This document shows, one piece after another, positions 1,135 to 31,358 of a stretch of DNA of 64,000 nucleotides. The notes under the pieces were generated by a model that was not told the origin of the DNA, did not search any database, and saw only the letters and a list, made by a program, of their open reading frames with translations. Origin of the DNA: a virus. Every line of letters begins with the position of its first letter. The stretch's first letter is position 1. A program made the translations under genes and the position numbers. The DNA is taken from the IMG/VR virus record IMGVR_UViG_3300028920_000041, positions 1 through 64,000 of that record; one strand, 5' to 3'.

Positions 1135-1509
1135 ATGATCTATCATCCAACAGAGATACAGGTTTTTCATGATTTGGTACTTGTCAGAAGGATTGATACG
1201 GTACAGACTCCAGGTGGTTTGATTCTGCCATACCATCCGGACAAAAAAGAATCAAACATTGTTAAGGTGGTCCAGGTGGGCTGTGGCGTCGTGAATAAGC
1301 CTGAGACAGTGCCGCAGTGCTGCCCCGGTGAGTATTGGCTAGTTGCTCGATACATTGGGACGATTATAACGCTAAATGGTCTTGATCATGTATTGGTCAA
1401 GTGGAACGACATGCAGGCGCGAGTATCCTTTTCTGAGGAAGCCAGGAAGCTTTTGGATGATGCGTTAGATTCCAAGGAAGGTCTTGCTAATGAGCGAAAG
1501 GCTTCTTGA
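1135..1509 (+). CDS. GroES-like co-chaperonin
   Basis: A protein of 124 residues with the GroES (Cpn10) pattern: VFHDLVLVRRIDTVQTPGGLILP near the N-terminus matches the family opening, where a conserved basic strand is followed by the mobile loop ending in GGI(V/L)LP. Next comes VVQVGCGV, equivalent to the family's VxAVGxG. The C-terminal strand HVLVKWND also fits. In T4 the co-chaperonin Gp31 replaces GroES so that GroEL can fold the capsid protein, and a similar role is inferred here. The last 20 bases overlap the start of the polymerase gene, so the two are probably translated together. The C-terminal 25 residues are extra relative to bacterial GroES. Confidence 0.7.
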   Translation: MIYHPTEIQVFHDLVLVRRIDTVQTPGGLILPYHPDKKESNIVKVVQVGCGVVNKPETVPQCCPGEYWLVARYIGTIITLNGLDHVLVKWNDMQARVSFSEEARKLLDDALDSKEGLANERKAS

Positions 1510-4438
1510 TGTTGCTTGTACAAAGTGTCCACTTCATCTAAGCGCGTTTACTGTTAAGGTAGCTAGTAGAGGATCTGAGAAGCCTCGAATACTCTTTGTT
1601 GGTGAAGCACCTGGTAGGGTCGAGGACAAGGCTGGCCAAGCCTTTGTTGGCAAGTCTGGTAAGAAGCTCAAGGAGTTATTTGGCCGGACGGGTATCGATG
1701 AGGACTGGTGTCGCTTCACCAACGTCGTTAGGTGCCTCCCACCGGGTCAAGGTGGGGCCAGTGTCAGGCCACCTTATCCCGAAGAGGTAGAAGCCTGCAG
1801 AGACTATTTAGAAGCAGAGATAGTCTCATGTGATCCTATATTCATTGTTCCACTTGGCCTTAGTGCTATAAAGTTTTTCTGTCCTAATCTAAAGACAGTC
1901 AAAGGAGCACGTGGTAAACGCCATGTTGTAGAGTTTCCATCGATAACATGGAGCTATAAGAAGTACAGGAAGTGGCTTCAGATCAAAGGCCTCGACGATG
2001 AGGTAAAGCAGGTATCCTCTGAAGGCCAGATGAAGGCTCAGCTAAAAAAAGCTATCAAGTCTGGGTTTCCAAATATACCGACAAAGACCTATACTGTTTG
2101 GCCGACGTTTCACCCCGCTGCAGTTCTTCGGGGGAATGCTGAAGCCGAACAACACATGGTTGAAGACTTCAGCTATATCAGGCATCAGATCACAGGGGAG
2201 TCTTCCATTCCCTGGCAGAAGTATAGGATTCTAAAGACTCTTGATGAGATCAAAGAAGTCTATGAGAACATAAAACAGCTTTACTTAACCGGGCAAATAA
2301 AGCACATTGTTTCAGATGTTGAAACGACAACTCTTGAAACGCATTTATGTCCGTTCTATGAGCTACTGTGTTTCTGTATTACATGGGGCGAAGAGCAGTC
2401 GGTTACGATTCCTTTCAACCATAAAGACAGCCCGTTTTTTAATGATAAGCTCTTACTTGATGCAGTTCGCTCTCTCACGAATGAACTTTTCGAGCTAGTT
2501 CCTGTTGCGAACCATAACCTCAAGTTTGATGTTCAGGCGTTTTGGAAGGCAGGCATCCATGTTAAGAAGGTATCTGATGATCCGATGCTTGCTGCCTGGA
2601 CACTTTTCAACGATACAGCAGAGCATGGATTAGAAGCTCTGACAACGCGTTATACGGATATGTTGTCCCACAAGGAAGAGTTTAGCTTGGCCTATAATAC
2701 TCTTCCCAATTACATGCCGTTGGAGGAAAAATATCATCGGGCAGATGGTGAGATCCCAAAGTTTTGTATCGAAGACGATAGTGGTAACCTTTATCGTCCT
2801 AAACACTATGGGGATGTGGATTTTGATATCCTCTGCAGGTACTGCGCAGCGGATGGTGATGGTACGTTTCGTCTCCAGGTTGTGTTAGAAAAGATCTTGC
2901 GGGAAAAGGGTTTGTGGGAGTCTCATCAAGCGCTTGCCATAAGAGCAACGCTGCCCGTTGCACAGATGGAATGGGATGGTATCCGACTTGATGTGGATAT
3001 GTTCCGGAAGTCTCAAAAAGAGTTTGAAAGGTCTTTGTCTCAAATAACACAGTGGTTCGAGGATCGTGGTTATTTAGAAGAGGCTTTGGAGGTTGTTAAT
3101 ACTCGGCTCAAGAAACCGGCTAAGTCAGCAAAGCTCACAAGTACGAATGTCAAACGAGCTATCGTTTACGACATACTTGGGTTTCCTGTTAAGAAGAAAA
3201 CGAAGAACAAAGATCCATTAAAAAGACTTCCTTCCACAGACAAAGAGGCTATAGAAGAGTGCCTAGAGCAGTGTTTGAAGCATAAAGGTACAGCTAAAGA
3301 CAAGCAAGGTTTCTACTCGCACCGAATAGAGGCTCTGACCAAGATCTTAACGTTCAACAAGGACAATAAAACTCTTACCAGTTACCTGAAGCGACTTCCA
3401 GAGCAAGTTGACGAAAACAAAATAGGTCACACGCATCTGGGAATACGAACAACAGACACTGGCAGATTTAACTGTAAGTCACCTTCATGGCATATTATCC
3501 CCTGGCACTCCATTATCAAAAAAGCTATCGTGCCCCTTCATGAAAATGGTTTGATCATGGTTTCGGACTTTGCACAGCAAGAGCTAAGAGTCCTGGCTAT
3601 GGTGACACAGGATGAAAAGCTCTTAGCTGCGTTTTCTAGTGATCGGGACCTGCACCGATACGTTGCGTCTTTGTGCTACAAAAAGCCTGAAGAGGACATT
3701 ACCGATGCAGAGAGACGAGACACAAAGTCTGTCTCTTTTGGTATTATATTTGGTCGTGGTGCGCCTGCTATTGCTGCACAGTTAAATATCTCCATAGACG
3801 AAGCGCAAGGCTTGATTGATCTGTGGATGACAACTTTCCCCAAAGTCAAGGAGTGGATTGATAGGCAGCACGAATTAGCACACAAGAACATGGAGGTTTG
3901 GACATGTTCAGGGTTCCATCGCATCTTTCCAGAGGGTATGTATGATGTTGGTGAAATAGAAAGAAGAGCACAAAATACACCGATTCAGGGTCCTGCTTCT
4001 GATATCTGTGATTATGCGATGATTCGCGCACAGGAAATTCTGTCAAAGGTAACCCAGCTACAATCAAAGCTCTGGGTTACGATTCATGACAGTCTTTGTT
4101 TTTCAATCTATCCATCGGAACTTTTGCCTATTGCAAACCTGGCAAGGAAGACAATGGTTGACTTAACACAAAGAGAGTTGCCGTGGGTGAAAATACCGCT
4201 AAAGAATGATTATGAAGTTGGGGTGACATGGGGTGAGCTTTTGAAAATGGAGCTACTCCAGGAGTTTGGAAAAGTTGAGCTAGATGGTCCTACAGAATAC
4301 TATGATCGCTTTGTCGAGTGTGTAATGAATTGGCAAAAGACACCAGAGCTATTATATGAAGAAACAAGGACAAAAGAAGGAGACGATGGATCTGTTGTAG
4401 AGTACACAAAATCTACTTGGAACTTAGCTGTTAACTAA
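1490..4438 (+). CDS. polA: uracil-DNA glycosylase / family A DNA polymerase fusion
   Basis: Replicative DNA polymerase of 982 residues with an N-terminal family 4 uracil-DNA glycosylase. The glycosylase part (about 1-240) has motif GEAPGRVED, the strand FTNVVRCLPP, the motif HPAAVLR, and four cysteines (10, 13, 82, 103) placed to hold an iron-sulphur cluster. The 3'-5' exonuclease follows with DVET, NHNLKFD and YCAADGD. The polymerase part has motif A (DFAQQELRVLA), motif B (RRDTKSVSFGIIFG) and motif C. Motif C reads HDS where most relatives have HDE, and the O-helix tyrosine after the fingers phenylalanine is phenylalanine. No 5'-3' exonuclease domain is attached; that activity is encoded separately at 8155. 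Start ATG 1490 follows AAGGAAGG. SPO1-type phages are known to carry a similar fusion. Confidence 0.95.
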   Translation: MSERLLDVACTKCPLHLSAFTVKVASRGSEKPRILFVGEAPGRVEDKAGQAFVGKSGKKLKELFGRTGIDEDWCRFTNVVRCLPPGQGGASVRPPYPEEVEACRDYLEAEIVSCDPIFIVPLGLSAIKFFCPNLKTVKGARGKRHVVEFPSITWSYKKYRKWLQIKGLDDEVKQVSSEGQMKAQLKKAIKSGFPNIPTKTYTVWPTFHPAAVLRGNAEAEQHMVEDFSYIRHQITGESSIPWQKYRILKTLDEIKEVYENIKQLYLTGQIKHIVSDVETTTLETHLCPFYELLCFCITWGEEQSVTIPFNHKDSPFFNDKLLLDAVRSLTNELFELVPVANHNLKFDVQAFWKAGIHVKKVSDDPMLAAWTLFNDTAEHGLEALTTRYTDMLSHKEEFSLAYNTLPNYMPLEEKYHRADGEIPKFCIEDDSGNLYRPKHYGDVDFDILCRYCAADGDGTFRLQVVLEKILREKGLWESHQALAIRATLPVAQMEWDGIRLDVDMFRKSQKEFERSLSQITQWFEDRGYLEEALEVVNTRLKKPAKSAKLTSTNVKRAIVYDILGFPVKKKTKNKDPLKRLPSTDKEAIEECLEQCLKHKGTAKDKQGFYSHRIEALTKILTFNKDNKTLTSYLKRLPEQVDENKIGHTHLGIRTTDTGRFNCKSPSWHIIPWHSIIKKAIVPLHENGLIMVSDFAQQELRVLAMVTQDEKLLAAFSSDRDLHRYVASLCYKKPEEDITDAERRDTKSVSFGIIFGRGAPAIAAQLNISIDEAQGLIDLWMTTFPKVKEWIDRQHELAHKNMEVWTCSGFHRIFPEGMYDVGEIERRAQNTPIQGPASDICDYAMIRAQEILSKVTQLQSKLWVTIHDSLCFSIYPSELLPIANLARKTMVDLTQRELPWVKIPLKNDYEVGVTWGELLKMELLQEFGKVELDGPTEYYDRFVECVMNWQKTPELLYEETRTKEGDDGSVVEYTKSTWNLAVN

Positions 4439-8154: not shown

Positions 8155-9120
8155 ATGTCAGTAGCTATTGTTGACGGAAATTACCTGTTACATAGATGCA
8201 TGCGTGTTGGGTCTGTAGCGGACTTGACAACCAAGACAGGGAAGCCTACAGGCGGGTTTTTTGCTTCTCTTAGATTCATACATGGGGCCATATCAGACAG
8301 CAATGCTAGCTCTGTCTATGTAGTGTTTGATTCTGGTATTTCGAAGAGACGAAGAGCACTACTACCACAGTACAAAGGCTCTCGTTATAGGGACGAGTCA
8401 GATCCTCTATACGAGCCACCAGACGAAGAGCACGCGCTTTACCTAAAGAAGTTTCGGCTTCAAAGAGCAATGCTGCAGTACATACTACCAAGACTTGCAG
8501 TGAGAACAGTAAGACTAAAGGAACCACATGGCTGGGAGGCAGATGATCTCATTTACTCGCTAACCAAGCTAGTCCCGTCCAAGAATGTCATTGTGGTTTC
8601 TGATGACAAAGACATGTTGCAACTTGTGTCACACACAGAAGATAGGTGTGTACAGGTTTCAAGACCTATTGCTAAGCAGTTTGTGACACAAGAGAACTTC
8701 GAGGACTGGTTTGAGTATCCACACGATCAAGAGCTTTTAAGAAAAGCCATACTAGGTGATTCAAGTGATAACATTCCTAAAGTGCCTGGTTGTGGTAAGA
8801 AGGGTGTTGATGCCATCTTTGATGAAGGTGCTCCGGTCGATTCTTATCCATTTGGAGATTTTATATGTTGGTGCATGGATCACAGACTCAAGAAGGTGCG
8901 CAGTATAGCGGATAACCTTGACGTTGTAATCAGAAACTATGAATTGATGTGTTTTGGTTTTGAAGATATGAGCCTTGCTGAAGCACAGTTAAAAGACATA
9001 ATCTCAGCGCCGGTAGATGTAGACTTGATCGAAGTCAAGAGTTTTTTGTCTAAGCTGGAACTGGCATCTATTGTCAATGAGCTTCATACGTGGGCCGCGG
9101 CTTTTCAGAGATTGAGATGA
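8155..9120 (+). CDS. 5'-3' exonuclease / flap endonuclease
   Basis: A 321-residue FEN/PIN-type nuclease like T5 D15 and T4 RNase H. It begins SVAIVDGNYLLHR, with the first metal-binding aspartate. The motif YVVFDSG and a basic arch segment (RRRALLPQYKGSR) follow. WEADDLIYSL and VVSDDKDMLQL give the acidic metal ligands, and LGDSSDNIPKVPGCGKKG is the helix-hairpin-helix DNA-binding element. It supplies the primer-removal activity that the polymerase here lacks. Start ATG 8155 is chosen because the family opening begins there; the reading frame is open 38 codons further upstream, overlapping the previous gene. The end overlaps the next start by four bases. Confidence 0.9.
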   Translation: MSVAIVDGNYLLHRCMRVGSVADLTTKTGKPTGGFFASLRFIHGAISDSNASSVYVVFDSGISKRRRALLPQYKGSRYRDESDPLYEPPDEEHALYLKKFRLQRAMLQYILPRLAVRTVRLKEPHGWEADDLIYSLTKLVPSKNVIVVSDDKDMLQLVSHTEDRCVQVSRPIAKQFVTQENFEDWFEYPHDQELLRKAILGDSSDNIPKVPGCGKKGVDAIFDEGAPVDSYPFGDFICWCMDHRLKKVRSIADNLDVVIRNYELMCFGFEDMSLAEAQLKDIISAPVDVDLIEVKSFLSKLELASIVNELHTWAAAFQRLR

Positions 9121-11976: not shown

Positions 11977-12552
11977 ATGTCTTCAACAAGAGGTTTTAAA
12001 CTTCCGAGAGATGAGTACTTGACGCCTCGAAGGCTAGTCAAGGCTGCTATTATCAAGCTGCATAGATCTTATCCGGAGTTTAAGCCTCTTACGTGTCTTG
12101 AACCGGGCTGTTCTTGGGCTTCTCACCTGGATTATGCACAAGATACCTTCTCAACATTAATCTACACAGTAGGTGTTGACGTATTAGACCAACCCACACA
12201 CCCAAGCCATGAGTTTATGTGTCATGACTTCACAACATGGCAAACAGAAGACAAGTTTGATCTGATAGTAACGAATCCACCATTCGGACTAGCAGAAGAG
12301 TTCTTCTTAAAGTCAAAAAACTTGCTAACGCCAACAGGCATAGCAATGTTGTTTCAGCGAATTGGTTTTTTTGCTTCGAAGAAAAGAAGACACAACTTGT
12401 GGGGCGAGATTAACTTAAAGCAGGTATGGATCTGTACGACGCGGCCTGCGATGATAGGCCAGCCGTCTGCAGACTCTTGCGAGTACGCTTATTACGTGTT
12501 TGATGCTAATTTGCCTGAAGGGAAAGTTCGGCTGGATTGGCTGGATTGGTAA
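11977..12552 (+). CDS. adenine-specific methyltransferase-like protein
   Basis: A 191-residue Rossmann-fold methyltransferase candidate. It shows a motif I-like strand (CLEPGCSWASHLD, with the usual ExGxG degenerate), an acidic end of strand 2 (VGVDVLD), and motif IV FDLIVTNPPFG, the NPPF signature of N6-adenine DNA methyltransferases. The following LLTPTGIAMLFQRIGF fits the next strand. It has no target-recognition domain and is short, so it may be a solitary or degenerate enzyme. Its start is one base after the preceding stop. Methylation could protect phage DNA, but this is inference; an RNA or protein substrate is possible. Confidence 0.65.
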   Translation: MSSTRGFKLPRDEYLTPRRLVKAAIIKLHRSYPEFKPLTCLEPGCSWASHLDYAQDTFSTLIYTVGVDVLDQPTHPSHEFMCHDFTTWQTEDKFDLIVTNPPFGLAEEFFLKSKNLLTPTGIAMLFQRIGFFASKKRRHNLWGEINLKQVWICTTRPAMIGQPSADSCEYAYYVFDANLPEGKVRLDWLDW

Positions 12553-12826
12553 CTTTATCAGAACATGTGTCCTGACCAATGTTGCTAAGCAGATAGTGAA
12601 GCTGTACTATCTTTTTTGCTAAAGACACACCGCCCATGCCTGAAAGAGTCCATGTTGCCAGGCACAAGAAACCAGAGGCTAAGAGCAGTCTATTGGAGCA
12701 TCCCTTCTGACCGGGTTGCTGCGCTTGGGATTGCGCTGTCTGGTGTAGTACCTCCATAACCGATGTGATCTGATTCCCACAATTCTGGACCACTGAAGTG
12801 GGATTACAGGGTTTTGACGTAGCCAT
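12506..12826 (-). CDS. small putative membrane protein, minus strand
   Basis: A 106-residue protein encoded against the direction of nearly all other genes. Its start is supported by a perfect AGGAGG seven bases before the ATG (the preceding codon is also ATG). The N-terminal half is polar and rich in Gln, Ser and Cys. A hydrophobic segment near residues 47-70 (LLLASGFLCLATWTLSGMGG) could be a membrane helix. Its 3' end converges on and overlaps the methyltransferase gene by 47 bases. It opens the accessory island and has no family that I recognise. The strong ribosome site is the main reason to trust it. Confidence 0.55.
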   Translation of the reverse strand: MATSKPCNPTSVVQNCGNQITSVMEVLHQTAQSQAQQPGQKGCSNRLLLASGFLCLATWTLSGMGGVSLAKKIVQLHYLLSNIGQDTCSDKVTNPANPAELSLQAN

Positions 12827-12937
12827 CATGAAACCTCCTACGGACATCTATAGCACCGATATGAGGCTATTTCCAGGCCTCTTCTTTTCAGCTACTCTAA
12901 CCTACGAAAAATGTCCATAGATTATCACTAAATTTTA

Positions 12938-12966
12938 TTGACAGCTATATATCTGCCTGCTACCTA
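12938..12966 (+). promoter_or_regulatory. weak promoter candidate
   Basis: A perfect TTGACA (12938-12943) is followed after 17 bases by TACCTA, a poor -10. It lies between the divergent minus-strand gene and the small gene at 12987. The -35 match is the only strong part, so this is a tentative call. Confidence 0.25.
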
Positions 12967-12986
12967 TGGTCGGTGGAGGGTTAGGC

Positions 12987-13157
12987 ATGATGCTGTCCAA
13001 AGAGAACCTGAGGAAAATGATCGGCCAGAACAGCAACACGAGGCAGCGCCTGGAGCAACTCAGGGCCGTAACGCTACAGCTCCTGGCGACACTCGATAGC
13101 CGACCGAAAAACCAGGCTCGCTCAGCCTATCCACTCCCAAACCTGATCGCATGCTGA
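12987..13157 (+). CDS. small hypothetical basic protein
   Basis: A 56-residue helical, basic peptide starting at an ATG (immediately followed by a second ATG) six bases after GGAGGG. It contains a heptad-like stretch (NTRQRLEQLRAVTLQLLATL) that could dimerise. Nothing identifies a function. It sits at the left edge of the island, upstream of the operator-rich leader, so it could be a small regulator. Confidence 0.45.
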   Translation: MMLSKENLRKMIGQNSNTRQRLEQLRAVTLQLLATLDSRPKNQARSAYPLPNLIAC

Positions 13158-13582
13158 ACTAGCTCCCCACCTGCGATATTAGCTAGAATGTTCTTTCTGG
13201 CTAAATCTCTCCCCTGATCTGTCAAGCTTCCAAACACAAACTTAGCTAGAATCTACCTGGAAAACTTGATCCAGAAATGCAGCTCTTTGTCAAGAGCTGT
13301 GTTACTGGCTGTCTTGTCGTGTCTTGATGCAATGCAGATCATGCACACTGGCTTGGCAGGACTAGACAGGAACCGTGTCACTGGCCACTCTACTAGCCCG
13401 TACCCTGCTAGGTAATCCCTTGTAATGATTACAGTAATTTGCCTGGTATTTGTCCGACAAATGTCCTTGACTGGATAGTACTATCTGTGTGAAACTAAAA
13501 GGAAAAACTAAAATTTGTTAGATTGGGAATCCCAGCAACGTCAACAACAGAGTCAACAACAGAGTCAACAAGGAGATGAGAG
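13158..13582 (+). promoter_or_regulatory. non-coding, operator-rich leader of the MoxR/vWA island
   Basis: No convincing gene lies in these 425 bases. They hold a direct repeat TTAGCTAGAAT (13179-13189 and 13242-13252) and three short perfect palindromes: GTAAT-G-ATTAC (13422-13432), ATTTGTC-C-GACAAAT (13448-13462) and GATAGTACTATC (13474-13485). A TTGACT lies just before the last palindrome. The palindromes are centred about 25-28 bases apart, which would suit cooperative binding of a dimeric repressor. The ribbon-helix-helix protein at the far end of the island is one candidate for the protein that binds here. Confidence 0.5.
13540..13574 (+). repeat. 12-base tandem repeat before island gene 1
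   Basis: The unit GTCAACAACAGA occurs at 13540-13551 and 13552-13563, and a third copy begins at 13564 and merges into the ribosome site AAGGAG of the following gene. The repeat therefore forms most of the 5' leader and could affect translation through copy-number change. Confidence 0.7.
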
Positions 13583-14590
13583 ATGAGTAAGACCACGAAG
13601 CGCAACACCAAGTCCGTCCACAACAACCGTTACAGTGACGGTGCCTTTGTGATGTGGAGTGCCAGGCTCACTGCCGCAGCGATGTCCTCACAGGACATCA
13701 GAGACATGGCCAACGCGGCTGGTCTCCCGGAGTCCATTGTCCCTGACTATGCCGGGGACCGAGCAATATGCAGTAGGGTCATTGACAGGCATGCGAGCAA
13801 GCTCAAGCGCCAGGGTTACGTGCTGTCCAAGCTCAAGAGGACCAAGAGCCATGTGCTCATGACAATCCACGAAACCTCGCGGGACATTGCTGCGAGGGAG
13901 ACAGAGTTACCGCAGGCGGGCACCCTGGAATGGACTAGCGAGACAAACGGCATTGTCTCGCCAGAGCAGCACACCGTTGCCGATTACCTGGATTACCACT
14001 ATCAGGATGCAGTGGGCAAAATCCATGCAACGGATTGGTCTAGCACCCTGATTGCCTATTTGCAGGATGAATGCCTTGCACAGGCCTGGAGAGATGATGG
14101 TCGGGTTTACTGGGTCCCTCCGACCCATCTTGACAGAGTCAGAGAGCTACAGGATTGGCTACAGAGTGTTGGTGTGAGCCTGGCCGTTGCTGAGATTGAC
14201 GGCGCTGTCAGAGAGTCTGTGGTTGAGGTAGTCGAGGCCTCTTTGGTGGACCAATTGGATGAGCTGCAAGCCGAAGTGGATGGATTCAACGGCTTGCAGA
14301 AGCCAAGCACCTACGCCGACCGTATCGAGAGGTATCATGAGCTACGCAAACGCGTTACCGTGCATACAGAGTGCCTGGGTATCGCTAAGTCCACTGCTAA
14401 CAGCCTCCTAAAGCAACTCGAAGACATGGAAGTGACCGTAGTGCAGCACTTGGCAACCCGTGAGAACATCCGTGTCAAAAGGGATGGCACAATAGAGCAG
14501 TTGGCTCCGGCCACAGACGAGTATGAGGACTCCGAGGACGAAGAGACGGACAACGAAACCGATACTCCCGTTGTGTCGTTTGATTGGTAG
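13583..14590 (+). CDS. uncharacterised first protein of the MoxR/vWA island
   Basis: A 335-residue protein starting at ATG 13583 after AAGGAG. The N-terminus is basic and Thr/Asn rich. The middle (about 130-210) looks globular, with conserved-looking aromatic residues. A helical, charged region (about 215-290) could be coiled coil. The C-terminus is acidic and ends in FDW. No catalytic motif is visible. It is followed after nine bases by the MoxR ATPase gene, so the two are almost certainly co-expressed, and it is probably a partner or substrate adaptor of the ATPase. Related three-gene sets (unknown protein, MoxR, vWA) exist in bacteria and phages, but I cannot name the family with confidence. 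Confidence 0.75.
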   Translation: MSKTTKRNTKSVHNNRYSDGAFVMWSARLTAAAMSSQDIRDMANAAGLPESIVPDYAGDRAICSRVIDRHASKLKRQGYVLSKLKRTKSHVLMTIHETSRDIAARETELPQAGTLEWTSETNGIVSPEQHTVADYLDYHYQDAVGKIHATDWSSTLIAYLQDECLAQAWRDDGRVYWVPPTHLDRVRELQDWLQSVGVSLAVAEIDGAVRESVVEVVEASLVDQLDELQAEVDGFNGLQKPSTYADRIERYHELRKRVTVHTECLGIAKSTANSLLKQLEDMEVTVVQHLATRENIRVKRDGTIEQLAPATDEYEDSEDEETDNETDTPVVSFDW

Positions 14591-14599
14591 GAGGGGACC

Positions 14600-15820
14600 A
14601 TGGCAACCAAAAAGAGTGCTAATAAGAAGACAACCAAGACGAACGGTATCCGTAAAAAAGTAACGGAATTTGTCATTGAATTGACAAAATGCCTCTTGGA
14701 ACGCGAGAGAGCGATAATGCTCGCCATGGTGGCCTTGTTGTCCAGAGAGCACTTGTTGTTGTTGGGTCCTCCAGGGGTTGCCAAGTCGCTATTGGTCCGC
14801 GAGATAACAAAGAGGATTGAAGGTAGCCAGTACTACGAACGCTTAATGAGCCAAACCACCGAGCCCAACGAAGTTTTCGGCCCAGTGGACTTGGCAGCGC
14901 TTAGTGACAGAGGCGAGTACCGCAGAGTCAGTAAGGGTGCGTTACAGACCGCCCATATTGGTTTTTTGGACGAGATATTCAAGGCTAACAGTACCATCTT
15001 GAATTGTCTGTTGACGCTAACCAACGAAAGACTGTACCACGAGGTTGGCTATGAGCCTCAACAGGCCCCACTACTGTCAATATTTGGGGCCAGCAACGAA
15101 ACACCGCAAGAGGACGAGTTAGGCGCGTTGTATGACCGGTTTCCCTTGAAGGTCGTGATTACCGATACGGTAGAGGAGTCCTCTTTTGAAGCTCTTGTGT
15201 TGGGTACCTTTGGCTCTACTGTCAAAAACACCATTACTGTTGACGATATCTTGGAAGCGCAGAAATTGTGTGACGCAGTAACAATACCCTCCGAAGTAGT
15301 TGAGGGGCTTAAACGCATTTGCCGTATCGAAGCCCCATCACAAGGGATCAGGGTGTCTGACCGTACCGTTGTCAAAGCCGCTAAAGTGCTCAAAGCAGCG
15401 GCCTGGTTGCGTGGTCGTAATGAGGTGATAGTAGAGGACTTGTCAATATTGGCTGATATGCTCTGGTCCGAACCAAAACAAATTAAAGCAGTTGAGCGTT
15501 TGGTCTACGAGGTTAGCAACCCACTACATCTCAGGGCAATTGAGACAGAGGACAGCGCTCGCGAAGTTTTTGGACAAATGCCGGATGATGATGCTGCCTG
15601 GCAGTCCAGCTATGACTCGTCCAAACGGACTGCGGAAAACGTAATTAAGCAGTTAGTTGATATGGATAACACTTTAGAGCGAGATATAGCGTCTAGTAAG
15701 GCCAGAGACAAGCGCAGAGCTTGGCAGTCCCTGCATGCGGTAAGAGAGCTACGCAAGCAAGCTGCTACAGTGCTTTACCGCAAAGCAGGCAAACAGTCCA
15801 CGCGCCTGGCGAGGGGCTGA
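14600..15820 (+). CDS. MoxR-family AAA+ ATPase, RavA-like
   Basis: A 406-residue AAA+ ATPase. Walker A is GPPGVAKS (56-63) in HLLLLGPPGVAKSLL, close to E. coli RavA. TTEPNEVFGPVDLAAL, the MoxR-specific segment, follows, then Walker B GFLDEIFKA (D124, E125), a segment ILNCLLTLTNER, and the sensor 1 region FGASNE. ALYDRFPLKV gives the arginine-finger area. These motifs occur in the same order in RavA. MoxR ATPases act as hexameric chaperones that insert cofactors or remodel complexes, working with a vWA partner. The gene has a GAGGGG-type site, and the next gene begins just after its stop. Leucine codons are unusually often TTG. Confidence 0.88.
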   Translation: MATKKSANKKTTKTNGIRKKVTEFVIELTKCLLERERAIMLAMVALLSREHLLLLGPPGVAKSLLVREITKRIEGSQYYERLMSQTTEPNEVFGPVDLAALSDRGEYRRVSKGALQTAHIGFLDEIFKANSTILNCLLTLTNERLYHEVGYEPQQAPLLSIFGASNETPQEDELGALYDRFPLKVVITDTVEESSFEALVLGTFGSTVKNTITVDDILEAQKLCDAVTIPSEVVEGLKRICRIEAPSQGIRVSDRTVVKAAKVLKAAAWLRGRNEVIVEDLSILADMLWSEPKQIKAVERLVYEVSNPLHLRAIETEDSAREVFGQMPDDDAAWQSSYDSSKRTAENVIKQLVDMDNTLERDIASSKARDKRRAWQSLHAVRELRKQAATVLYRKAGKQSTRLARG

Positions 15821-15822
15821 CA

Positions 15823-17253
15823 ATGGGACTATGTTACAAAACTTCAACGTGGGCTGACCGATTGTGGTCTAGCCACGTTAAGCAGTCCCGACAGGCACAG
15901 GCTATTGTTAGTAGAGGAGAGGTTAAGCAGGGAGCTAGCTACAGCGGGTTCGCTAGCGACCTACACAGCAGATTGTACCTCAACAACGAGCCTGACAAGC
16001 TTAACAGTGGTCCAGACTGGGCGAGCAAACTGCATGAGTCAGCTAGTGACCTAGCGGAGTGGCGTCAACTCAAGTCGCGGTGTCGCCATGATGGGTTTGC
16101 CGCTGGCGTTGCTACAGAGGCAATCCTGTCGTGTCTGTCAGATCAGATACCCGATAGTAGCGATAGTGACAACTCCGACCCTGACACGTCAGAGCTACCC
16201 TATACGGATGCACCAGTGGTGCCTGGCCAGGCCAGCGGCCCCCCAGCGGCTTGGACGGACCAGAGTCCACCTGATGATGCTGACACCCGCCAGGCGCTTA
16301 GGCGGGCTGTCAGAGCGGCCAGAGATGCAGTGGTGGAGATAGACGCCAGTCTAGACGGTCTGCAGACTGCTCTAGGACTGCGCCGGCCAGGGACCGCTAT
16401 CGGGGAGCAAGCTACGTATCAGGATATAGATAAAATCAGAGAGGCACACCGGACAGTATCCCGGTCCCGCAACCTGCAGCAGATAGCAGAGCTAGCAGGC
16501 CGGTTCACGCGCTTGGCAGCAACCAAGCAGCGTAACAAAGTGCGCGGTAGCGTGGGCGCGGTCAAAGGGGTTGAGCTATCTGGTGACCTATCACGCGTGC
16601 TACCAAGCGAGCTAGCAGGCCTCAGAGGCAGCCGCTATGAGCGTTTGCTCACACTGGCCAAGTTGGTTGACAAGAGAGCGCTCTCCTATCGGTTGGAGGC
16701 TAAAGAGACCGAGGCCAGGGGTCCCGTAGTCATATGCACTGACCTATCAAGCTCTATGCGAGGGTCCAGAGACCTGTGGGCCAAAGCTTGCACGCTAGCC
16801 ATCCTGTCCACGGCCACTAGACAGCGTCGGGCCTGCACTGTGCTCGGCTTTGACCGGGCTATCAGGCATACAGACACTATCAGAGCCAGTGATACTACGG
16901 CCGATGATATTGACAGGGTACTATCGCATGCCCCGCGCGGAGGTACCGATTACAATCCTCCGCTTACAAAGGCTGCAGATATAATAGAGACAGATCATGT
17001 TATGTCTAAAGCTGACATTATCCTAATCACTGACGGCGAGGCATACCTGGATACTGAGGTTGCTACTAGATTGCAGAGCCTGACTACAGACCATGGTGTT
17101 AACATCTACGTCATAGCCATTGGCAACGAGGCGAGGGAAATACAGCAGGGACCACTGTCAAGGGTAGCAACGCGGCTAGCAGTGGTCGAGTCAACAGCAC
17201 TCGATACGGCCACAGACCCGGTCGTATTCGAGTCGGTAAATTTGGAGGGATAA
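15823..17253 (+). CDS. vWA-domain protein, ViaA/CoxE-like partner of the MoxR ATPase
   Basis: A 476-residue protein whose C-terminal half is a von Willebrand A domain with a complete metal site: DLSSS (D307, S309, S311), GGTD with T375, and ITDGEA with D404. The stretch before it (LPSELAGLRGSRYERLLTLAK then SYRLEAKE and RGPVVICTD) has the same order as in E. coli ViaA. Residues 105-160 form an acidic, disordered-looking linker. RavA and ViaA work as a pair in E. coli, where they affect respiratory enzymes and aminoglycoside sensitivity. Here the pair is in a phage, and its target is unknown. Start ATG 15823 follows GAGGGG two bases after the ATPase stop. Confidence 0.85.
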   Translation: MGLCYKTSTWADRLWSSHVKQSRQAQAIVSRGEVKQGASYSGFASDLHSRLYLNNEPDKLNSGPDWASKLHESASDLAEWRQLKSRCRHDGFAAGVATEAILSCLSDQIPDSSDSDNSDPDTSELPYTDAPVVPGQASGPPAAWTDQSPPDDADTRQALRRAVRAARDAVVEIDASLDGLQTALGLRRPGTAIGEQATYQDIDKIREAHRTVSRSRNLQQIAELAGRFTRLAATKQRNKVRGSVGAVKGVELSGDLSRVLPSELAGLRGSRYERLLTLAKLVDKRALSYRLEAKETEARGPVVICTDLSSSMRGSRDLWAKACTLAILSTATRQRRACTVLGFDRAIRHTDTIRASDTTADDIDRVLSHAPRGGTDYNPPLTKAADIIETDHVMSKADIILITDGEAYLDTEVATRLQSLTTDHGVNIYVIAIGNEAREIQQGPLSRVATRLAVVESTALDTATDPVVFESVNLEG

Positions 17254-17254
17254 G

Positions 17255-17761
17255 ATGGCAACAGAGATGCAAGATCAGGAGTTGAGGTCAGAGTTTGAGA
17301 GTATTGTCGATTGGGTTGAGAGCAATTGTCATAAGAGTTTGCTCTACGTGTACAACTACCAGGTGCACGGTACTGGCAGGAGTGATAGGTATGAGCGGGC
17401 GCTCAAAGAGGTTAACAACTCTGTGCATTACGCGATAGCCTGTTTTAAGGTGATTCGGTTGCGTAGGATTTGCAAACTGTACGAGGTTAATCTGTTTGGT
17501 GACACACGCAAGGCTAACATGATAGATCGTATCTGTAGCAGGATGGTGACAATTTTGCTAGATAGGTTTTCGAAGTACGAAGACAGCGAAAAGGCCAAAG
17601 AAGAGACAATACATTTTATTACTCGCATTCACGAGCACTATATTGCGCATAAACACGTTGGAGAGCATCCAGAACAGTATACAGAGACCATCGTAACGCG
17701 CCAGATGGCTCTAACGATGTTGAGGATTGCCACATCGGTTCTCACAGACTACGAGGACTAG
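17255..17761 (+). CDS. hypothetical helical protein, possible SAP-like motif
   Basis: A 168-residue, mostly helical protein starting after GGAGGG, one base behind the vWA gene. The segment LRRICKLYEVNLFGDTRKANMIDRI resembles the two-helix SAP motif that binds DNA, but the match is by eye. The rest (HFITRIHEHYIAHKH) is histidine rich. It belongs to the island operon and has no known family to me. Confidence 0.65.
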   Translation: MATEMQDQELRSEFESIVDWVESNCHKSLLYVYNYQVHGTGRSDRYERALKEVNNSVHYAIACFKVIRLRRICKLYEVNLFGDTRKANMIDRICSRMVTILLDRFSKYEDSEKAKEETIHFITRIHEHYIAHKHVGEHPEQYTETIVTRQMALTMLRIATSVLTDYED

Positions 17762-17772
17762 ACGCAACGTGT

Positions 17773-17821
17773 GATAGCTGCTAGGCTGCATCGCTACCAC
17801 GGTGCGGCCTGTGGAGCTATC
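17773..17821 (+). promoter_or_regulatory. long imperfect hairpin between island genes
   Basis: Outer arms GATAGCT (17773-17779) and AGCTATC (17815-17821) enclose inner arms AGGCTGCATCG (17783-17793) and CGGTGCGGCCT (17800-17810). The inner arms pair throughout with two G-U wobbles around a six-base loop. There is no T-tract, so it is not a classical terminator. It ends 22 bases before the next start and could shape translation or mRNA stability. Confidence 0.55.
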
Positions 17822-17842
17822 AACCCGTGCTAAGGAGGATCC

Positions 17843-18484
17843 ATGCGACCAAGAGTGACAATCAATGACAAAAGCATTGTCAGCCACAACTACAATCGCG
17901 CTAGCAGTACATATGAGCGATCAAACTGGCAACACCTTTTAACGATGGATGAGGACGGCACCATAGACGTAGAGACGCTGTTTGGAGGTGGGACTCCACT
18001 GTCTGTACACACGGGCAGGACGCTGGTACTAGCTCACGTACCAGACGGGGTGGCGGATGCCTCTGACTTGGCAGAGTGGCTACAGGACCAGGACAACCTG
18101 ACAGGCCTGCAGAGCCTGCTAGATGGCCACAGTACGAGCATGGACAACAACGGCCGGTGGCAGGGGGTGCTGACAGACAGCGCGGCAGACTGGCTCCAGG
18201 AGCTAGCAGACCGCTGCCAGGCGGTCTGCTACGAGTTGCCTCAGTACTGGGATGCTAACGACTATTATATTGACACATCGCGAGAGCTAATCGAGGCTGC
18301 GTTTTCCGATGACCGCCAGACGCAGGTGGAGCTACTCGTTGACGCTGCGTTGACAGATAGCGAGCCGGCGCACCTGGAGCCTGCAGATGTGGACTCTCAC
18401 CTGGATTGGGTCAAGGATAACTACTGTCACCAGTGCTACGAGGACAGCAGATACTGTACCTGTGAGGAGGACTCAGCATGCTAG
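17843..18484 (+). CDS. hypothetical acidic protein with C-terminal cysteine cluster
   Basis: A 213-residue acidic protein starting after a perfect AAGGAGG. The body has no family I recognise; it is rich in Asp, Leu and Trp (LAEWLQDQ, DWLQELADRC). The last 20 residues contain CHQCYEDSRYCTCEED, five or more cysteines that could bind zinc. The stop overlaps the next start by seven bases. As part of the MoxR/vWA island it may be a client or adaptor. Confidence 0.7.
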   Translation: MRPRVTINDKSIVSHNYNRASSTYERSNWQHLLTMDEDGTIDVETLFGGGTPLSVHTGRTLVLAHVPDGVADASDLAEWLQDQDNLTGLQSLLDGHSTSMDNNGRWQGVLTDSAADWLQELADRCQAVCYELPQYWDANDYYIDTSRELIEAAFSDDRQTQVELLVDAALTDSEPAHLEPADVDSHLDWVKDNYCHQCYEDSRYCTCEEDSAC

Positions 18485-18690
18485 CTCCAGGTACACGAGT
18501 CATCATGGTTGAGGTGGACCACAGGGGTGTTGCGCACCGGGTCAACTGCATAGGGACGGTGGTGCAAACGGGTCTGTCAGAGTCTGTCAGTGGTAGCAAA
18601 GCGTGGTACAAAGTTCGGTGGGACGCTGTTACAGGCCTCGGCACCGGATGGATTCACATTACGCAACTAGAGCCACTGTATCATGGCTGA
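18478..18690 (+). CDS. small beta-rich protein (SH3-like barrel candidate)
   Basis: A 70-residue protein that begins in the preceding gene's last codons, eight bases after AGGAGG. Its pattern (GTRVIMVEVDHRG, NCIGTVVQTG, WYKVRWDAVTG, GWIHITQLEPL) is that of a small barrel that often sits in nucleic-acid or protein interaction modules. This is a fold guess. It overlaps the following regulator gene by eight bases. Confidence 0.65.
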   Translation: MLAPGTRVIMVEVDHRGVAHRVNCIGTVVQTGLSESVSGSKAWYKVRWDAVTGLGTGWIHITQLEPLYHG

Positions 18691-18847
18691 CAAAACCGAT
18701 AGCAGGCGTATTGACATCCGAGTCAGCGGACAGCTATTTTCGTGGGTTGACTCTCAGGCCAAAGCCAAAGGGTTTCGCACTCGTTCTGAGTTTATTCGTT
18801 ATGTCCTGGAGTCTCTAAGGCTCAAAGACCGTAAAAAACTCCTGTAG
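18683..18847 (+). CDS. ribbon-helix-helix (CopG/Arc-type) regulator
   Basis: A 54-residue protein at the end of the island, overlapping the previous gene by eight bases. RIDIRVSGQLFSWVDSQAKA then GFRTRSEFIRYVLESLR is the ribbon-helix-helix pattern: a short beta strand that enters the DNA major groove, two helices, and the conserved S-E-F/I-R turn. Such dimers repress their own operons by binding short palindromes. The palindromes at 13422-13485 in front of the island are natural candidate targets. The family call is firm; the target is inference. Confidence 0.85.
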   Translation: MADKTDSRRIDIRVSGQLFSWVDSQAKAKGFRTRSEFIRYVLESLRLKDRKKLL

Positions 18848-20339: not shown

Positions 20340-21161
20340 ATGGGCACTATTGAAAAACTTCAGGCAGCCGGTCTTGATGTACAGTTTGACTCATTTATGG
20401 ATGAGTTTTTCCTTGATGATGCAAAAAAGGATCAGCTCCGCACTATGGTTGATCAGAGGGGGCTGACGGATCCGGTGGTCATGAAGACCATCGGTGTGAT
20501 GCAGCGTGAAAAAGTGATGCAGGTTGGCATTTACAAGCAGTTCAAGGCCCTGCAGGCCGAGCTGGACGATCCCTCTGGTGAGTCTGCTCCGCAGTCTGTG
20601 GATGCCTCCGAGGCACCTGCGAGCGATTCTGAGACGGCTCAGAGTCCTTCAGGCGGCAATGGTCATTCGGCAGCGGCAGAGCCCAGCGACGAAGAGGTGG
20701 AGGCCAGGATCGCAGCCTACTCGTTTTCCTCCGAGCAAGAGGAGATGATCAAGCAGCGTCTCAAAGCCGAGGAAGAGAAGATTCGTAAGCGTCTTCTGGC
20801 TCAAGAAAAGAAGATCCGCGAGCAGATTGTTACCGGCCGTGTCAGGAAGCGGACAAGGCTTGGTCTCAAGCCCGAGCAAGCCAAGGAGTTTACTGAGGCG
20901 CGGGAAGCAATCAAGAAGAACCAGGCAAAGATCAAAGAGCTGCGCGCTGAAAATGCGCAGCATAAGAAGGTTATTGAAAGACTGCGTCCCAAGCGCAATG
21001 TGACGCCTTCCACGCCAGCGCAGAAGCAACTCAGGGTTGCCAAGCGCAAGCTCACCATGGCTATCAACGAAAAGAATGATACGTTGATCGAACAGGCCAA
21101 GCTCAATCTTGCCAAGGCAGAGCAAGTGCTCGAAGCCGAGCAAGCGCAGCTTCAGGTGTAG
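20340..21161 (+). CDS. hypothetical coiled-coil protein
   Basis: A 273-residue protein starting after AAAGGAGAGAGG. Residues 1-75 look globular and helical. A low-complexity Ser/Ala/Pro/Glu linker (75-120) follows. The last 150 residues are a long charged helix with many lysine, glutamate and glutamine heptads, clearly a coiled coil (EEKIRKRLLAQEKKIREQ). The family is unknown. It is GC-richer than the neighbouring resolvase. It is probably structural or a DNA-associated scaffold. Confidence 0.75.
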   Translation: MGTIEKLQAAGLDVQFDSFMDEFFLDDAKKDQLRTMVDQRGLTDPVVMKTIGVMQREKVMQVGIYKQFKALQAELDDPSGESAPQSVDASEAPASDSETAQSPSGGNGHSAAAEPSDEEVEARIAAYSFSSEQEEMIKQRLKAEEEKIRKRLLAQEKKIREQIVTGRVRKRTRLGLKPEQAKEFTEAREAIKKNQAKIKELRAENAQHKKVIERLRPKRNVTPSTPAQKQLRVAKRKLTMAINEKNDTLIEQAKLNLAKAEQVLEAEQAQLQV

Positions 21162-22859: not shown

Positions 22860-23480
22860 GTGTCGAAAACAGAAGATTCTATAAGACAAGAAATTGACAG
22901 GCTCTTAAACAAGCCTATAGCGAGTGAGAAACGGGTATTAGAGATCATTGTCGACGCTATCACAAGCAAGTACGCCGACCCTGACCTGGTAGAAAAAGCA
23001 GTAAGACAATCTGTGTTCAACTATGAAACACAGATGCGTATCTTCCAAATTGCTGCAGCAAAAAGACAGCTAAACCGTATTGTCAAGTTAATCAATATGA
23101 CAGAGGCTCTTGAAGATCACGCCATGTCACCCGAGGTTATGGCGAAAATGGAGTCTAAGGATTTGATTAACCTCTACGGTAAAGCACAAGCGGCAGTTAG
23201 GGAAGGGTTAGACCATATCAAGAGAGTTGTCGATATGCGGCTTGAGGCTACAGCCGCACAGACAGCTATGATGTCTACAATTAACCAAAGAGAAGTAGAG
23301 GCTGTAGATATCACAGGGATCAGCAATTTGACATCACAGCAAAGAGACAAAGTCAGAAGGATTGTAGATGGTATAGTTGACGATATAGATGACTTGAATA
23401 CAGGCGATGCAAATCTACTAAAAGAGTCTGGCAGCAATGGGCATGGTGGTAACGGAGAATCCAATCTAGGTTCTATCTAA
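22860..23480 (+). CDS. helical protein upstream of terminase, small-terminase candidate
   Basis: A 206-residue, almost fully helical protein. GTG 22860 follows TGGAGG at a five-base gap and is preferred to an upstream GTG at 22839. The middle contains a heptad-rich helix; the tail is disordered and Gly/Asn/Ser rich. The stop overlaps the start of the large terminase gene, the usual place of the small terminase. No clear helix-turn-helix is seen, so the role is inferred from position. Confidence 0.5.
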   Translation: MSKTEDSIRQEIDRLLNKPIASEKRVLEIIVDAITSKYADPDLVEKAVRQSVFNYETQMRIFQIAAAKRQLNRIVKLINMTEALEDHAMSPEVMAKMESKDLINLYGKAQAAVREGLDHIKRVVDMRLEATAAQTAMMSTINQREVEAVDITGISNLTSQQRDKVRRIVDGIVDDIDDLNTGDANLLKESGSNGHGGNGESNLGSI

Positions 23481-26400
23481 TGCAGCACAAAACCGTAGAG
23501 ACGATAGTTAATCAGCTACTCCAGGGCAATACGAGTATCTATGATCAGCTAGCAGCCGATGAGCGAAAGCTACTCGATTCCATACTAGATGAGCTAAAGA
23601 AGTTTGGTAAGTCAACAACGCTATCGTCGCTATGGGAACAAGACTTCGAGATTAAGCCAGTAACTATTGATAAGTTCCTGCATGATGATTACTACCTAGG
23701 CAAGATAGGTAAAGACATATTCCCGAAGTGGAAAGATGAGCTAAAGACCGTATGTGATCCCAATAAAGAAATTTGTGAATGGGTAATTCGTGGCTGCGTA
23801 GGCAGTGGAAAAACTACTGTGGCAGTAGTAGCTCTTCTGCATAGGATTCATTTACTCTGCTGTATGAAGAATCCACAGCAGTTCTATGGTTTGATGGAAG
23901 GGTCTCCAATCGTTTTTGGCTTGTTCAATATCTATAAGTACTTAGCACAGGATACTAGCTATAAGTACTTTACTAATTGGGTGAAGCTATCACCTTTCTT
24001 TCAAGAGTCTATGCGCGCAGCCTATGCGCAAGAGAGATCTGTACCGGGTTGGCTACAGCGCTTAAATAGGATGTATGGTATTGATAATGATGAGATGGCC
24101 AATAGCTATATGCGATTTCCAAAAGGGATTACAATAGCACTTGGCAGCAGTGCTATCCACGCATTGGGTCAGAATTTGTTTGGAGGTTTGTGCTTTGTAG
24201 GGAGTACTAAGATTCCTTTATTGAATGGTACAATTAAAACTCTTGAGGAGTTATCTAGATCCTCAGATGATAGTTTCTGGTATTATGGGGTTGATAGAGA
24301 CGGGGGGTTAGTTCCAACTTTAGGGACCAAACCAGTAAAAACTAGATCTAATGTACCTGTAGTAAAGGTAACTCTAGACAATGGTTCTCACGAGGTTTGT
24401 ACTCCAGACCATGAATGGATGCTTACAGATGGAAGCTATGTAAAAGCTTCGAATCTCAGTAGCGGGGATTCGTTGATGCCTTTTTATTCAAAGATAAATG
24501 ACTATGGTTACCAAGAAGTGTGGAGTAGTGAGTCTCATTCTTGGGAGAAAACTCACCAGATGGTGGGTAGGTTTATGTGGGGTGATCTTTATGGGGAAAA
24601 AGTCGCAGAGGGTCAATACAATGTTGTTCATCATACTAATGGTAAGCTGGATAATACTCCTGAGTCTTTAAGGTTGATGGGACATTTGGATCATATGGAG
24701 TTACATACTCGTCTAGTAGAGTTAAGCCATTCTCCAAAAGCTATGGAGAAGAGACGAAAGACACTAGAGGATTATTGGAAGACAGAACGCCCAGATATCA
24801 GTTCTAAGATCTCTAAAAAAGCTTGGAAAGAGTACAAGGCAGGTTTGAGAACTGGCTATGATAATACTATAATAAGAGCTAAGTTCAAGACAGAAGAGGA
24901 ATTGCTGACACTTAAAAATATGTGCATAAATAGGAACAAAACCGATAAAATGCGGGAGTTGTCTGGAAAAAGGATTTTAAAGTGGAGTTTAGAGCATAAG
25001 GAAGAGTTACGTAGGGCAGGCCGGGAGCAGATGAAGAGATTGTGGAGTGATCCAGAGTTTGTAGATAGGCAACGCGAAAGAGCTAGGCTCCGGTTCTATG
25101 AATACAATAAAACAGTAAAAAGGTCAAAGTTGACGTTTGGTGATTTAACTTCAGCTACTATGGACATTTTGCGTGATGTAGGAGTTAACACCAGAGGTCA
25201 AGATTATATCTTTTCTAAGAATTTACTGGCTGATTATCTTGGGCTTAGATCAAGAACAGTTATAGATCGTATTTTACGGGAGAATGATTTATCCTGGAAC
25301 GAATTCACCTCTGCGTTTGGTTGTAGAGTTAGGAACCATAAAGTTGTTTCTGTGGAGCCTTATGGGAGTGCTGATGTCTATTGCTTAAAGACGACTGTTG
25401 GTAATTTTGCTCTTACAAACAGCATAGTCCATAACTGCGATGAAGCTGACATGAGCAAAAATAGAGCGCTCAAGTCCGACGAAAAGACTAAGGTCGAAGA
25501 GCTATATGGCCAAGCAAAGTCAAGGCTAGACTCCAGGTTTCTTCAATTAGGTGGTGTTAATCCAGGACTCTTGATCTTGGTATCTCAGGTTCAAGAGTCA
25601 GATAGTTTTTTAAGTAAGCATGTAGATAAGGTTTCTAAAGATCTAAGAACCCACATTAGTGGGTTTGCTCTTTGGGAGATCAAGGACCATCTTTTCCCAG
25701 ATACAGAACCACGGTTCAAGGTCGTAGTAGGAACACGAAGCTACAGAAGCTTTATTGCGGAACCGGGTAAGCTAATCCCCAAAGGCGCACAGATTATTGA
25801 GGTACCAGAGTCTCTAAGGCCTAGGTTCGAATACTCTGTAGATGATGCTATCAGAGACCAAGCAGGTATCCCCACCTATGGTGCCAACCTGTTTCTTCCA
25901 AGGCGGGATAAGCTCTTCGAGTGTTACCAGAAGTCTGCATACAGAGATCATCCTTTTACGACAGATACAGTAGAGCTTTCTATTGAGGTTGAAGACCAAA
26001 GCTCCATAGCAGATTACTTTACCAAAGAAGCTTGCATGGAGCAATACGACAAAGCCACAGGCAGGTGGAGGCCTAAGTGGTTTCCTGGAGAAGACAGAGC
26101 GATCCATATTGACCTTTCAAAAAATGGTGACTGTACAGGCTTAGCCATGGGGTGTATCGGCAACATCAAACGTGTACAGCGTTATGATGGTGATGGTAGA
26201 CCTTATTGGGAGCAAGACTATGAGACCTTTATTGACTTTGTCTTGCAGATTAAAGCAGCTAAAGGTTCAGAGATAGACTTTTCCAAGATCAGACAGTTCA
26301 TTTTCTACTTACAGGCTTTAGGTTACCAGATACGCTATATTAGCCTTGATGGCTGGAATTCTGTAGACACCATTCAGATCATGAAAAAGGCAGGATTCGA

Positions 26401-31284: not shown

Positions 31285-31358
31285 GCCTCCATAGGCCAAC
31301 TGGCAGAGCCATGACACTTAAAATGTCAAAAGTCTGGGTTCGAATCCCAGTGGAGGCA
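31285..31358 (+). tRNA. tRNA with anticodon UAA (Leu codon UUA), short variable arm
   Basis: A 74-base cloverleaf: acceptor GCCTCCA with TGGAGGC, D-arm GGC/GCC with an 11-base loop, anticodon stem TGACA/TGTCA around loop CTTAAAA (anticodon TAA), a five-base variable region AAAGT, T-arm CTGGG/CCCAG with loop TTCGAAT, and discriminator A. No CCA is encoded. The anticodon reads UUA leucine, but leucine tRNAs of bacteria normally have a long variable arm, which this one lacks. It begins one base after the stop of the preceding gene. Confidence 0.88.

What the first reader, a model, noticed from the sequence alone, without database searches (positions are those of the whole stretch)
12506..18847. 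Phage-borne RavA/ViaA-type MoxR-vWA island with its own regulator
Seen: a complete MoxR AAA+ ATPase (Walker A at codons 56-63, VFGP segment, FLDEI) is followed after two bases by a vWA protein with an intact metal site and a ViaA-like region before it. They sit in one operon with an unknown 335-aa protein upstream, a SAP-like protein, a cysteine-tailed protein, a small barrel-like protein and a ribbon-helix-helix regulator. The region is GC-richer than its flanks (32 of 60 bases at 16141-16200 against 27 of 60 at 8161-8220). Known: MoxR-vWA pairs are chaperone systems, and related pairs occur in predicted bacterial conflict systems. Inferred: a mobile chaperone or defence/counter-defence module in a phage. 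The combination with this set of partners may not have been described.
Basis: partly seen in the sequence, partly recalled or inferred. Interest (0 to 1): 0.8.

Follow-up and report, generated by a model that had tools for sequence, protein, structure and literature searches.

The report
Viral three-part protein-remodelling machine (DUF6744)
This phage carries three neighbouring genes, an ATP-driven ring motor, its metal-binding partner and a third protein of unknown function, and the same trio recurs across very different viruses of bacteria and archaea, which points to an undescribed virus-specific machine for reshaping or removing proteins while viral DNA is being copied.

Summary
The MoxR AAA+ ATPase (14600-15820) and vWA protein (15823-17253) are real and intact. 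The "unknown 335-aa protein" (13583-14590) is a divergent member of Pfam DUF6744. Profile searches find it beside MoxR-vWA pairs in 60 of 75 non-redundant viral groups, in varying gene order. Starting from DUF6744 alone, 50 of 57 viral loci carry a full AAA+/vWA pair: 17 RavA/ViaA-like, as here; 33 with a different AAA+ protein and a vWA fused to a metallopeptidase domain (DUF2201). No locus has both types. Cultured viruses with all three genes: MTATph1, 0305phi8-36 and the archaeal HVTV-1 and HCTV-5. DUF6744 thus looks like the dedicated third part of a viral AAA+/vWA machine; I found no description of it.

The 168-, 213-, 70- and 54-aa neighbours have no relatives in the other 92 loci, so the larger "island" is not a conserved unit. 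The GC and codon anomaly is real, but the trio sits in the same place in a relative 32-43% identical, which argues against recent arrival. Surrounding genes are for DNA replication and recombination. Likely action (inferred): ATP-driven remodelling of a DNA-metabolism client, with DUF6744 as adaptor or client. The client is unknown.

The parts
13583..14590 (+). 335-aa DUF6744-family protein, third component of the trio
   Evidence: Homologues beside MoxR-vWA in 60 of 75 viral groups; 48 of 53 homologues match PF20529 DUF6744, best 5.8e-90, though the window's own match is weak at 0.021; AF2 model pLDDT 87.8 matches HVTV-1 L7TK87 in the viral library, and HVTV-1 gene 25 of the same length is DUF6744 at 3e-19; no PDB match at E<=0.001
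14600..15820 (+). MoxR-type AAA+ ATPase, 406 aa, RavA-like core and lid without the LARA or RavA C-terminal domains
   Evidence: bpMoxR 1e-50, AAA_5 1e-24, AAA_lid_8 4e-16; PDB RavA 3nbx E=1.8e-45 over residues 19-301; the Salmonella RavA yardstick has LARA and RavA_C, the window protein does not
15823..17253 (+). vWA protein, 476 aa, with intact MIDAS and a helical N-terminal region, ViaA/NorD-like
   Evidence: VWA_2 7.9e-7; ViaA model 2.8e-21 over 201-433; conserved MIDAS residues; AF2 model pLDDT 86.8 matches NorD in the NorQD complex (9qhe_G, TMt 0.57) and the MDN1 MIDAS domain (8ql1_C)
17255..17761 (+). 168-aa protein of unknown function, co-directional, not part of the conserved module
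   Evidence: starts one base after the vWA gene; no relative in the other 92 loci; no SAP match
17843..18484 (+). 213-aa protein of unknown function, not part of the conserved module
   Evidence: no relative in the other 92 loci
18478..18690 (+). 70-aa protein of unknown function, not part of the conserved module
   Evidence: no relative in the other 92 loci
18683..18847 (+). 54-aa possible ribbon-helix-helix regulator, not part of the conserved module
   Evidence: phrog_27098 1.6e-5, phrog_4738 repressor 1.6e-3; NikR 1.2e-3; no relative in the other 92 loci

Best explanation
The core is a virus-specific three-part AAA+ remodelling machine: a MoxR AAA+ ATPase, a vWA/MIDAS partner and DUF6744. 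By analogy with NorQ-NorD, a MoxR ring would use ATP to move a vWA 'finger' in its pore while the vWA metal site grips an acidic residue of a client protein. DUF6744 has no conserved catalytic-looking residues and is built of an alpha/beta region plus a long helical segment, so it would be the adaptor that brings the client, or the client itself. Gene context places the action in the DNA replication and recombination stage of infection. In many other viruses DUF6744 is accompanied by a different AAA+ protein and a vWA fused to a metallopeptidase domain, so the outcome can be remodelling or, probably, cleavage of the client. Shown: gene content, conservation, intact motifs, co-occurrence, swapping of the motor types, predicted folds. 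Inferred: the complex, the pulling mechanism, the DNA-stage client.
For: From MoxR or vWA outward: DUF6744 in 60 of 75 viral groups, upstream, between or downstream of the pair, plus 0305phi8-36 where it lies beyond the fetched flank. From DUF6744 outward: 50 of 57 loci with a full AAA+/vWA pair, two mutually exclusive types, although the type-I MoxR pattern was found in only 84 contigs of a 2.9-million-contig collection. Some DUF6744-first loci are contigs already found through MoxR. All three genes in one genome in cultured viruses of bacteria and archaea. Correlated divergence: Mantel r 0.52 and 0.67, none of 999 permutations as high. In the MoxR tree the DUF6744-less loci need only 5 changes against 14 when shuffled. 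HExxH in 33 of 35 type-II vWA proteins. Neighbours: clamp loader, DnaB, primase-helicase, exonuclease, Sak4, RusA, PD-(D/E)XK nuclease. NorQD mechanism: PMC9976466; fold match to NorD.
Against: MoxR-vWA pairs without a detectable DUF6744 exist (CL131 and a nine-locus clade; AAA_5 proteins but no DUF6744 in S-PM2, P-SSM2, Atu_ph07 and RG-2014), so the pair can work without it. In HVTV-1, HCTV-5 and 0305phi8-36 the third gene is not adjacent to the pair. Gene neighbourhood is indirect evidence for the DNA-stage client, and many phage replication clusters also hold unrelated genes. No specific client was found; ribonucleotide reductase was tested and rejected. The Mantel values may partly reflect shared phage ancestry.
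Confidence: 0.55

Rival explanations
1. Virion assembly machine: the trio matures or assembles capsid or tail proteins, as reported for the Acidianus two-tailed virus pair and proposed for jumbo phages with a metallopeptidase-vWA.
For: The jumbo phage review proposes this for the metallopeptidase-vWA pair of group 2.2 jumbo phages and cites tail assembly in ATV (PMC7824862). The type-II loci here carry the same vWA design.
Against: Recurrent neighbours of the type-I trio are replication and recombination genes; no structural family is among the 18 PHROG families with two or more members. In 0305phi8-36 the MoxR pair is described among right-arm, non-structure genes (PMC2147016). DUF6744 was not found in ATV, Atu_ph07 or RG-2014.
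Confidence: 0.2
2. Cobalamin auxiliary metabolism: the AAA+/vWA pair is CobS-CobT working with a host CobN.
For: Proposed for the AAA+/vWA pair of archaeal tailed viruses including Druskaviridae (PMC8651126), the family of HVTV-1 and HCTV-5, which have DUF6744.
Against: In the window the best curated models are RavA and ViaA, with no CobS or CobT hit and only a weak putative-cobaltochelatase match (6.1e-5). No ribonucleotide reductase large subunit was found in this 120,930-base record, and only 4 of 47 trio contigs have one. The cobalamin pathway gives no role to DUF6744.
Confidence: 0.05
3. Defence or counter-defence module, comparable to MoxR-vWA conflict ternary systems.
For: Known conflict systems combine MoxR, vWA and a third component (PMC7159879); the window's MoxR matches bpMoxR, a family named from such systems. 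The GC and codon anomaly shows foreign-like composition.
Against: The third component is DUF6744; Pfam gave no VMAP, iSTAND, FtsH or beta-propeller match to the trio or its DUF6744 homologues. Salmonella RavA also matches bpMoxR, so that name is not specific. Conservation across viruses of bacteria and archaea fits a basic viral need better.
Confidence: 0.15
4. Chance cluster: the 335-aa gene is an unrelated neighbour of an ordinary MoxR-vWA pair.
For: DUF6744 is absent from some MoxR-vWA viruses and can lie several kilobases away.
Against: 50 of 57 DUF6744-first loci carry a full pair, in two exclusive types and several gene orders.
Confidence: 0.03

Closest known systems
RavA-ViaA of enterobacteria
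   Same: closest solved and curated relatives of the MoxR core (1.8e-45) and of the C-terminal half of the vWA protein (2.8e-21); adjacent genes in the same order
   Different: no LARA or RavA C-terminal domain, far below curated cut-offs; viral, with DUF6744
MoxR-vWA ternary conflict systems (VMAP, iSTAND, FtsH, beta-propeller; PMC7159879)
   Same: MoxR, vWA and one conserved third protein
   Different: a different third protein, viral genomes, no effector domains seen in the trio
MoxR plus metallopeptidase-vWA pair of group 2.2 jumbo phages (PMC7824862)
   Same: same vWA design as the type-II partners of DUF6744
   Different: the passages read name no third component; one jumbo phage tested, Atu_ph07, lacks DUF6744; the window uses the type without peptidase
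CobS-CobT-like pair of archaeal tailed viruses (PMC8651126)
   Same: AAA+ and vWA pair in viruses that also encode DUF6744 (HVTV-1, HCTV-5)
   Different: interpreted there as vitamin B12 synthesis; DUF6744 is not mentioned in the passages read
NorQ-NorD (PMC9976466)
   Same: mechanistic template; the NorD chain is a fold match to the window's vWA (TMt 0.57)
   Different: inserts iron into nitric oxide reductase; no DUF6744

Membership tests
MoxR AAA+/vWA pairs (general) | intact Walker A and B and AAA lid in the ATPase | tested here: met
   GPPGVAKS, FLDEI; AAA_5 and AAA_lid_8 matches
MoxR AAA+/vWA pairs (general) | vWA partner with DxSxS-T-D metal site encoded next to it | tested here: met
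   D307, S309, S311, T375, D404; two-base gap
MoxR AAA+/vWA pairs (general) | ring assembly and ATP-driven remodelling | not testable with these tools
   needs biochemistry
RavA (NF010054) | LARA and RavA C-terminal domains | tested here: not met
   absent in the window, present in the Salmonella yardstick
RavA/ViaA equivalogs | score above the curated cut-off | tested here: not met
   185 against 681 bits for RavA, 76 against 500 for ViaA
DUF6744 (PF20529) | match above Pfam's gathering score by the window protein itself | tested here: not met
   14.2 against 27 bits; filed as a divergent homologue, not as a member by Pfam's own cut-off
DUF6744 (PF20529) | homology to members that match the model | tested here: met
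   26 loci matched in the first pairwise round and 73 after iteration; 48 of 53 homologues match PF20529; predicted fold matches HVTV-1 L7TK87, a virus whose gene 25 is DUF6744
MoxR-vWA conflict ternary systems | third component VMAP, iSTAND, FtsH or beta-propeller | tested here: not met
   third component is DUF6744
CobS-CobT cobaltochelatase subunits | match to cobaltochelatase models | tested here: inconclusive
   only a weak TIGR02442 match, 6.1e-5, far under its cut-off; whether the library holds CobS and CobT models of the viral kind was not checked
Metallopeptidase-vWA (DUF2201) type | DUF2201_N domain with HExxH in the vWA protein | tested here: not met
   the window's vWA has no DUF2201_N match; this type occurs in other DUF6744 loci

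The most novel reading that the evidence does not exclude
DUF6744 marks an undescribed, virus-specific AAA+ machine shared by tailed viruses of bacteria and archaea, whose motor and vWA parts can be swapped between a chaperone-like and a protease-like version, and which acts on a DNA replication or recombination protein. The 'CobST' genes read as vitamin B12 genes in DUF6744-bearing archaeal viruses would be the same machine.
Probability: 0.35. Interest if true: 0.8.

Novelty: new variant of a known kind. Interest (0 to 1): 0.62.

Why it matters
MoxR-vWA pairs in viruses have been explained separately as virion assembly factors, vitamin B12 genes and conflict systems. A shared third gene ties several of these pairs together, gives a protein family of unknown function a testable partnership, and offers cultured viruses (0305phi8-36, MTATph1, HVTV-1, HCTV-5) in which to find the client. 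It also warns against reading viral AAA+/vWA pairs as cobalamin genes by default.

Tried and rejected
Single-protein viral scan with the window MoxR found nothing; the two- and three-sequence alignments worked. The first DUF6744 alignment was too diverse to scan with, and the eight-sequence one was too diverse for genome contigs; a four-sequence one gave only two loci there. DUF6744 against the PDB by sequence and by fold gave no convincing relative. Ribonucleotide reductase as client, suggested by its place near DUF6744 in HVTV-1 and MTATph1, was rejected: 4 of 47 trio contigs, none in this genome. A matched-background scan with the phage RecA returned only 4 loci and was not usable. No Rfam element other than one tRNA-Leu in the window, and no repeats in the 1-kb gap before the trio.
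Full report
What is in the window. The window is the first 64,000 bases of a 120,930-base IMG/VR virus record. The MoxR ATPase and the vWA protein are complete, two bases apart and intact in their known motifs. The 335-aa gene ends nine bases before MoxR.

The 335-aa protein is DUF6744. Pfam gives the window's own copy only a weak match (0.021). Profile iteration from it over 93 loci finds 73 homologues, 26 of them already in the first pairwise round, and 48 of 53 aligned homologues match PF20529. The AF2 model is confident (pLDDT 87.8). It has no PDB relative at E<=0.001, but matches four viral models, one of them HVTV-1 L7TK87; gene 25 of HVTV-1, of the same length, is DUF6744 by sequence. 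The best-conserved columns are glycines, aromatics, an arginine, a proline and hydrophobics, so an enzymatic role is unlikely.

The linkage. Starting from MoxR and vWA, viral scans gave 76 groups at 80% MoxR identity, one being the Salmonella yardstick. Of the other 75, 60 have DUF6744 within the fetched flanks, before, between or after the pair. Phage 0305phi8-36, counted as lacking it, has it just beyond the flank. Starting from DUF6744 through its R-x-x-G-G-x-Y motif, 57 further loci were read. 17 carry the MoxR/ViaA-like pair and 33 a second pair, an AAA_5 protein with a DUF2201 metallopeptidase-vWA; two have only the vWA and five neither. Three of the five have less than 2 kb on one side. 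Some of the 17 are contigs already found through MoxR. No locus has both types, and HExxH is kept in 33 of 35 type-II vWA proteins. In cultured viruses all three genes were seen in MTATph1, 0305phi8-36, HVTV-1 and HCTV-5. No DUF6744 was found in CL131, S-PM2, P-SSM2, Atu_ph07, RG-2014, HGTV-1 or ATV.

Evolution. Distances among the three proteins correlate over 67 non-redundant trios (r 0.52, 0.67 and 0.68; none of 999 permutations as high). A MoxR tree places the window with L005 (100/99) and gathers most DUF6744-less loci in one clade. L005 keeps the order gp32-like gene, RecA, exonuclease, Mre11-Rad50, then the trio, so the trio's place predates the split of the two phages. The window's trio is 8.7 points richer in GC than its flanks; across 115 loci the mean is 2.5 points and 89% are positive, so part of the excess is usual for these genes. 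The anomaly also covers the four unlinked genes and 20340-21161; in-place replacement is not excluded.

Context and mechanism. In the window the trio lies among DNA metabolism genes: UDG-DNA polymerase A (1484), gp32-like protein (5044), RecA (6048), Mre11-Rad50 (9090), DNA ligase (18948), with, by my reading of the sequence, a RuvC-like resolvase at 21380. Elsewhere, Pfam and PHROGs name clamp loaders, DnaB and primase-helicases, exonucleases, ParB-like proteins, Sak4, RusA and PD-(D/E)XK nucleases. The vWA model matches NorD in the NorQD complex and the MDN1 MIDAS domain. In NorQD the vWA is proposed to put a finger in the ATPase pore and to bind an acidic client patch through its metal site (PMC9976466). 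I infer the same here, with DUF6744 as adaptor or client.

Literature. Phage and archaeal virus pairs were read as virion assembly (PMC7824862), cobalamin synthesis (PMC8651126) or a metalloprotein chaperone (PMC2147016); cellular relatives form conflict systems (PMC7159879). No open-access paper in the library mentions DUF6744, so I treat the trio as undescribed, with the limit that most subscription papers and bioRxiv preprints are not in that library.

Limits. Linkage does not prove contact. Complexes could not be modelled. The viral contigs are often fragments, and the search patterns sample the family rather than exhaust it. No matched background rate of co-occurrence could be measured. 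Both predicted models rest on alignments of 50 to 52 sequences.

Noticed in passing
window 23480-26800: The terminase large subunit gene (1106 aa) carries an intein splicing domain (PF14890, 3.6e-12, residues 245-652); tblastn hits to other terminases fall in two pieces.
   Followed up: partly
window 1484-4438: Uracil-DNA glycosylase domain fused in front of a family A DNA polymerase with 3'-5' exonuclease.
   Followed up: no
window 12553-13582: About 1 kb with little coding before the trio, partly covered by a minus-strand 113-aa ORF (12506-12847) without Pfam match; no repeats or Rfam element.
   Followed up: partly
window 20340-21161: A 273-aa charged, coiled-coil-looking protein with GC and codon use like the island, separated from it by a ligase gene of ordinary composition.
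   Followed up: no
L017, L044, L054, L072, L087-L091: A clade of nine viral loci with MoxR-vWA but no DUF6744; a recurrent 300-aa gene near the pair is a reverse transcriptase (RVT_1, 1.3e-24 in L017), and L044 has a 2023-aa fused RNA polymerase beta-beta' gene.
   Followed up: partly
L003 758-1600: In Aphanizomenon phage CL131 the gene before MoxR-vWA is not DUF6744 but has a large polyvalent protein domain, LPD29 (6.8e-22), perhaps an alternative third component.
   Followed up: no
L150 9989-13465: An Anaeromyxobacter oryzisoli genome contig carries the full trio DUF6744-MoxR-vWA in one run; whether it is a prophage was not checked.
   Followed up: partly
window 31285-31358: The only tRNA gene in the window, tRNA-Leu (taa).
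   Followed up: no
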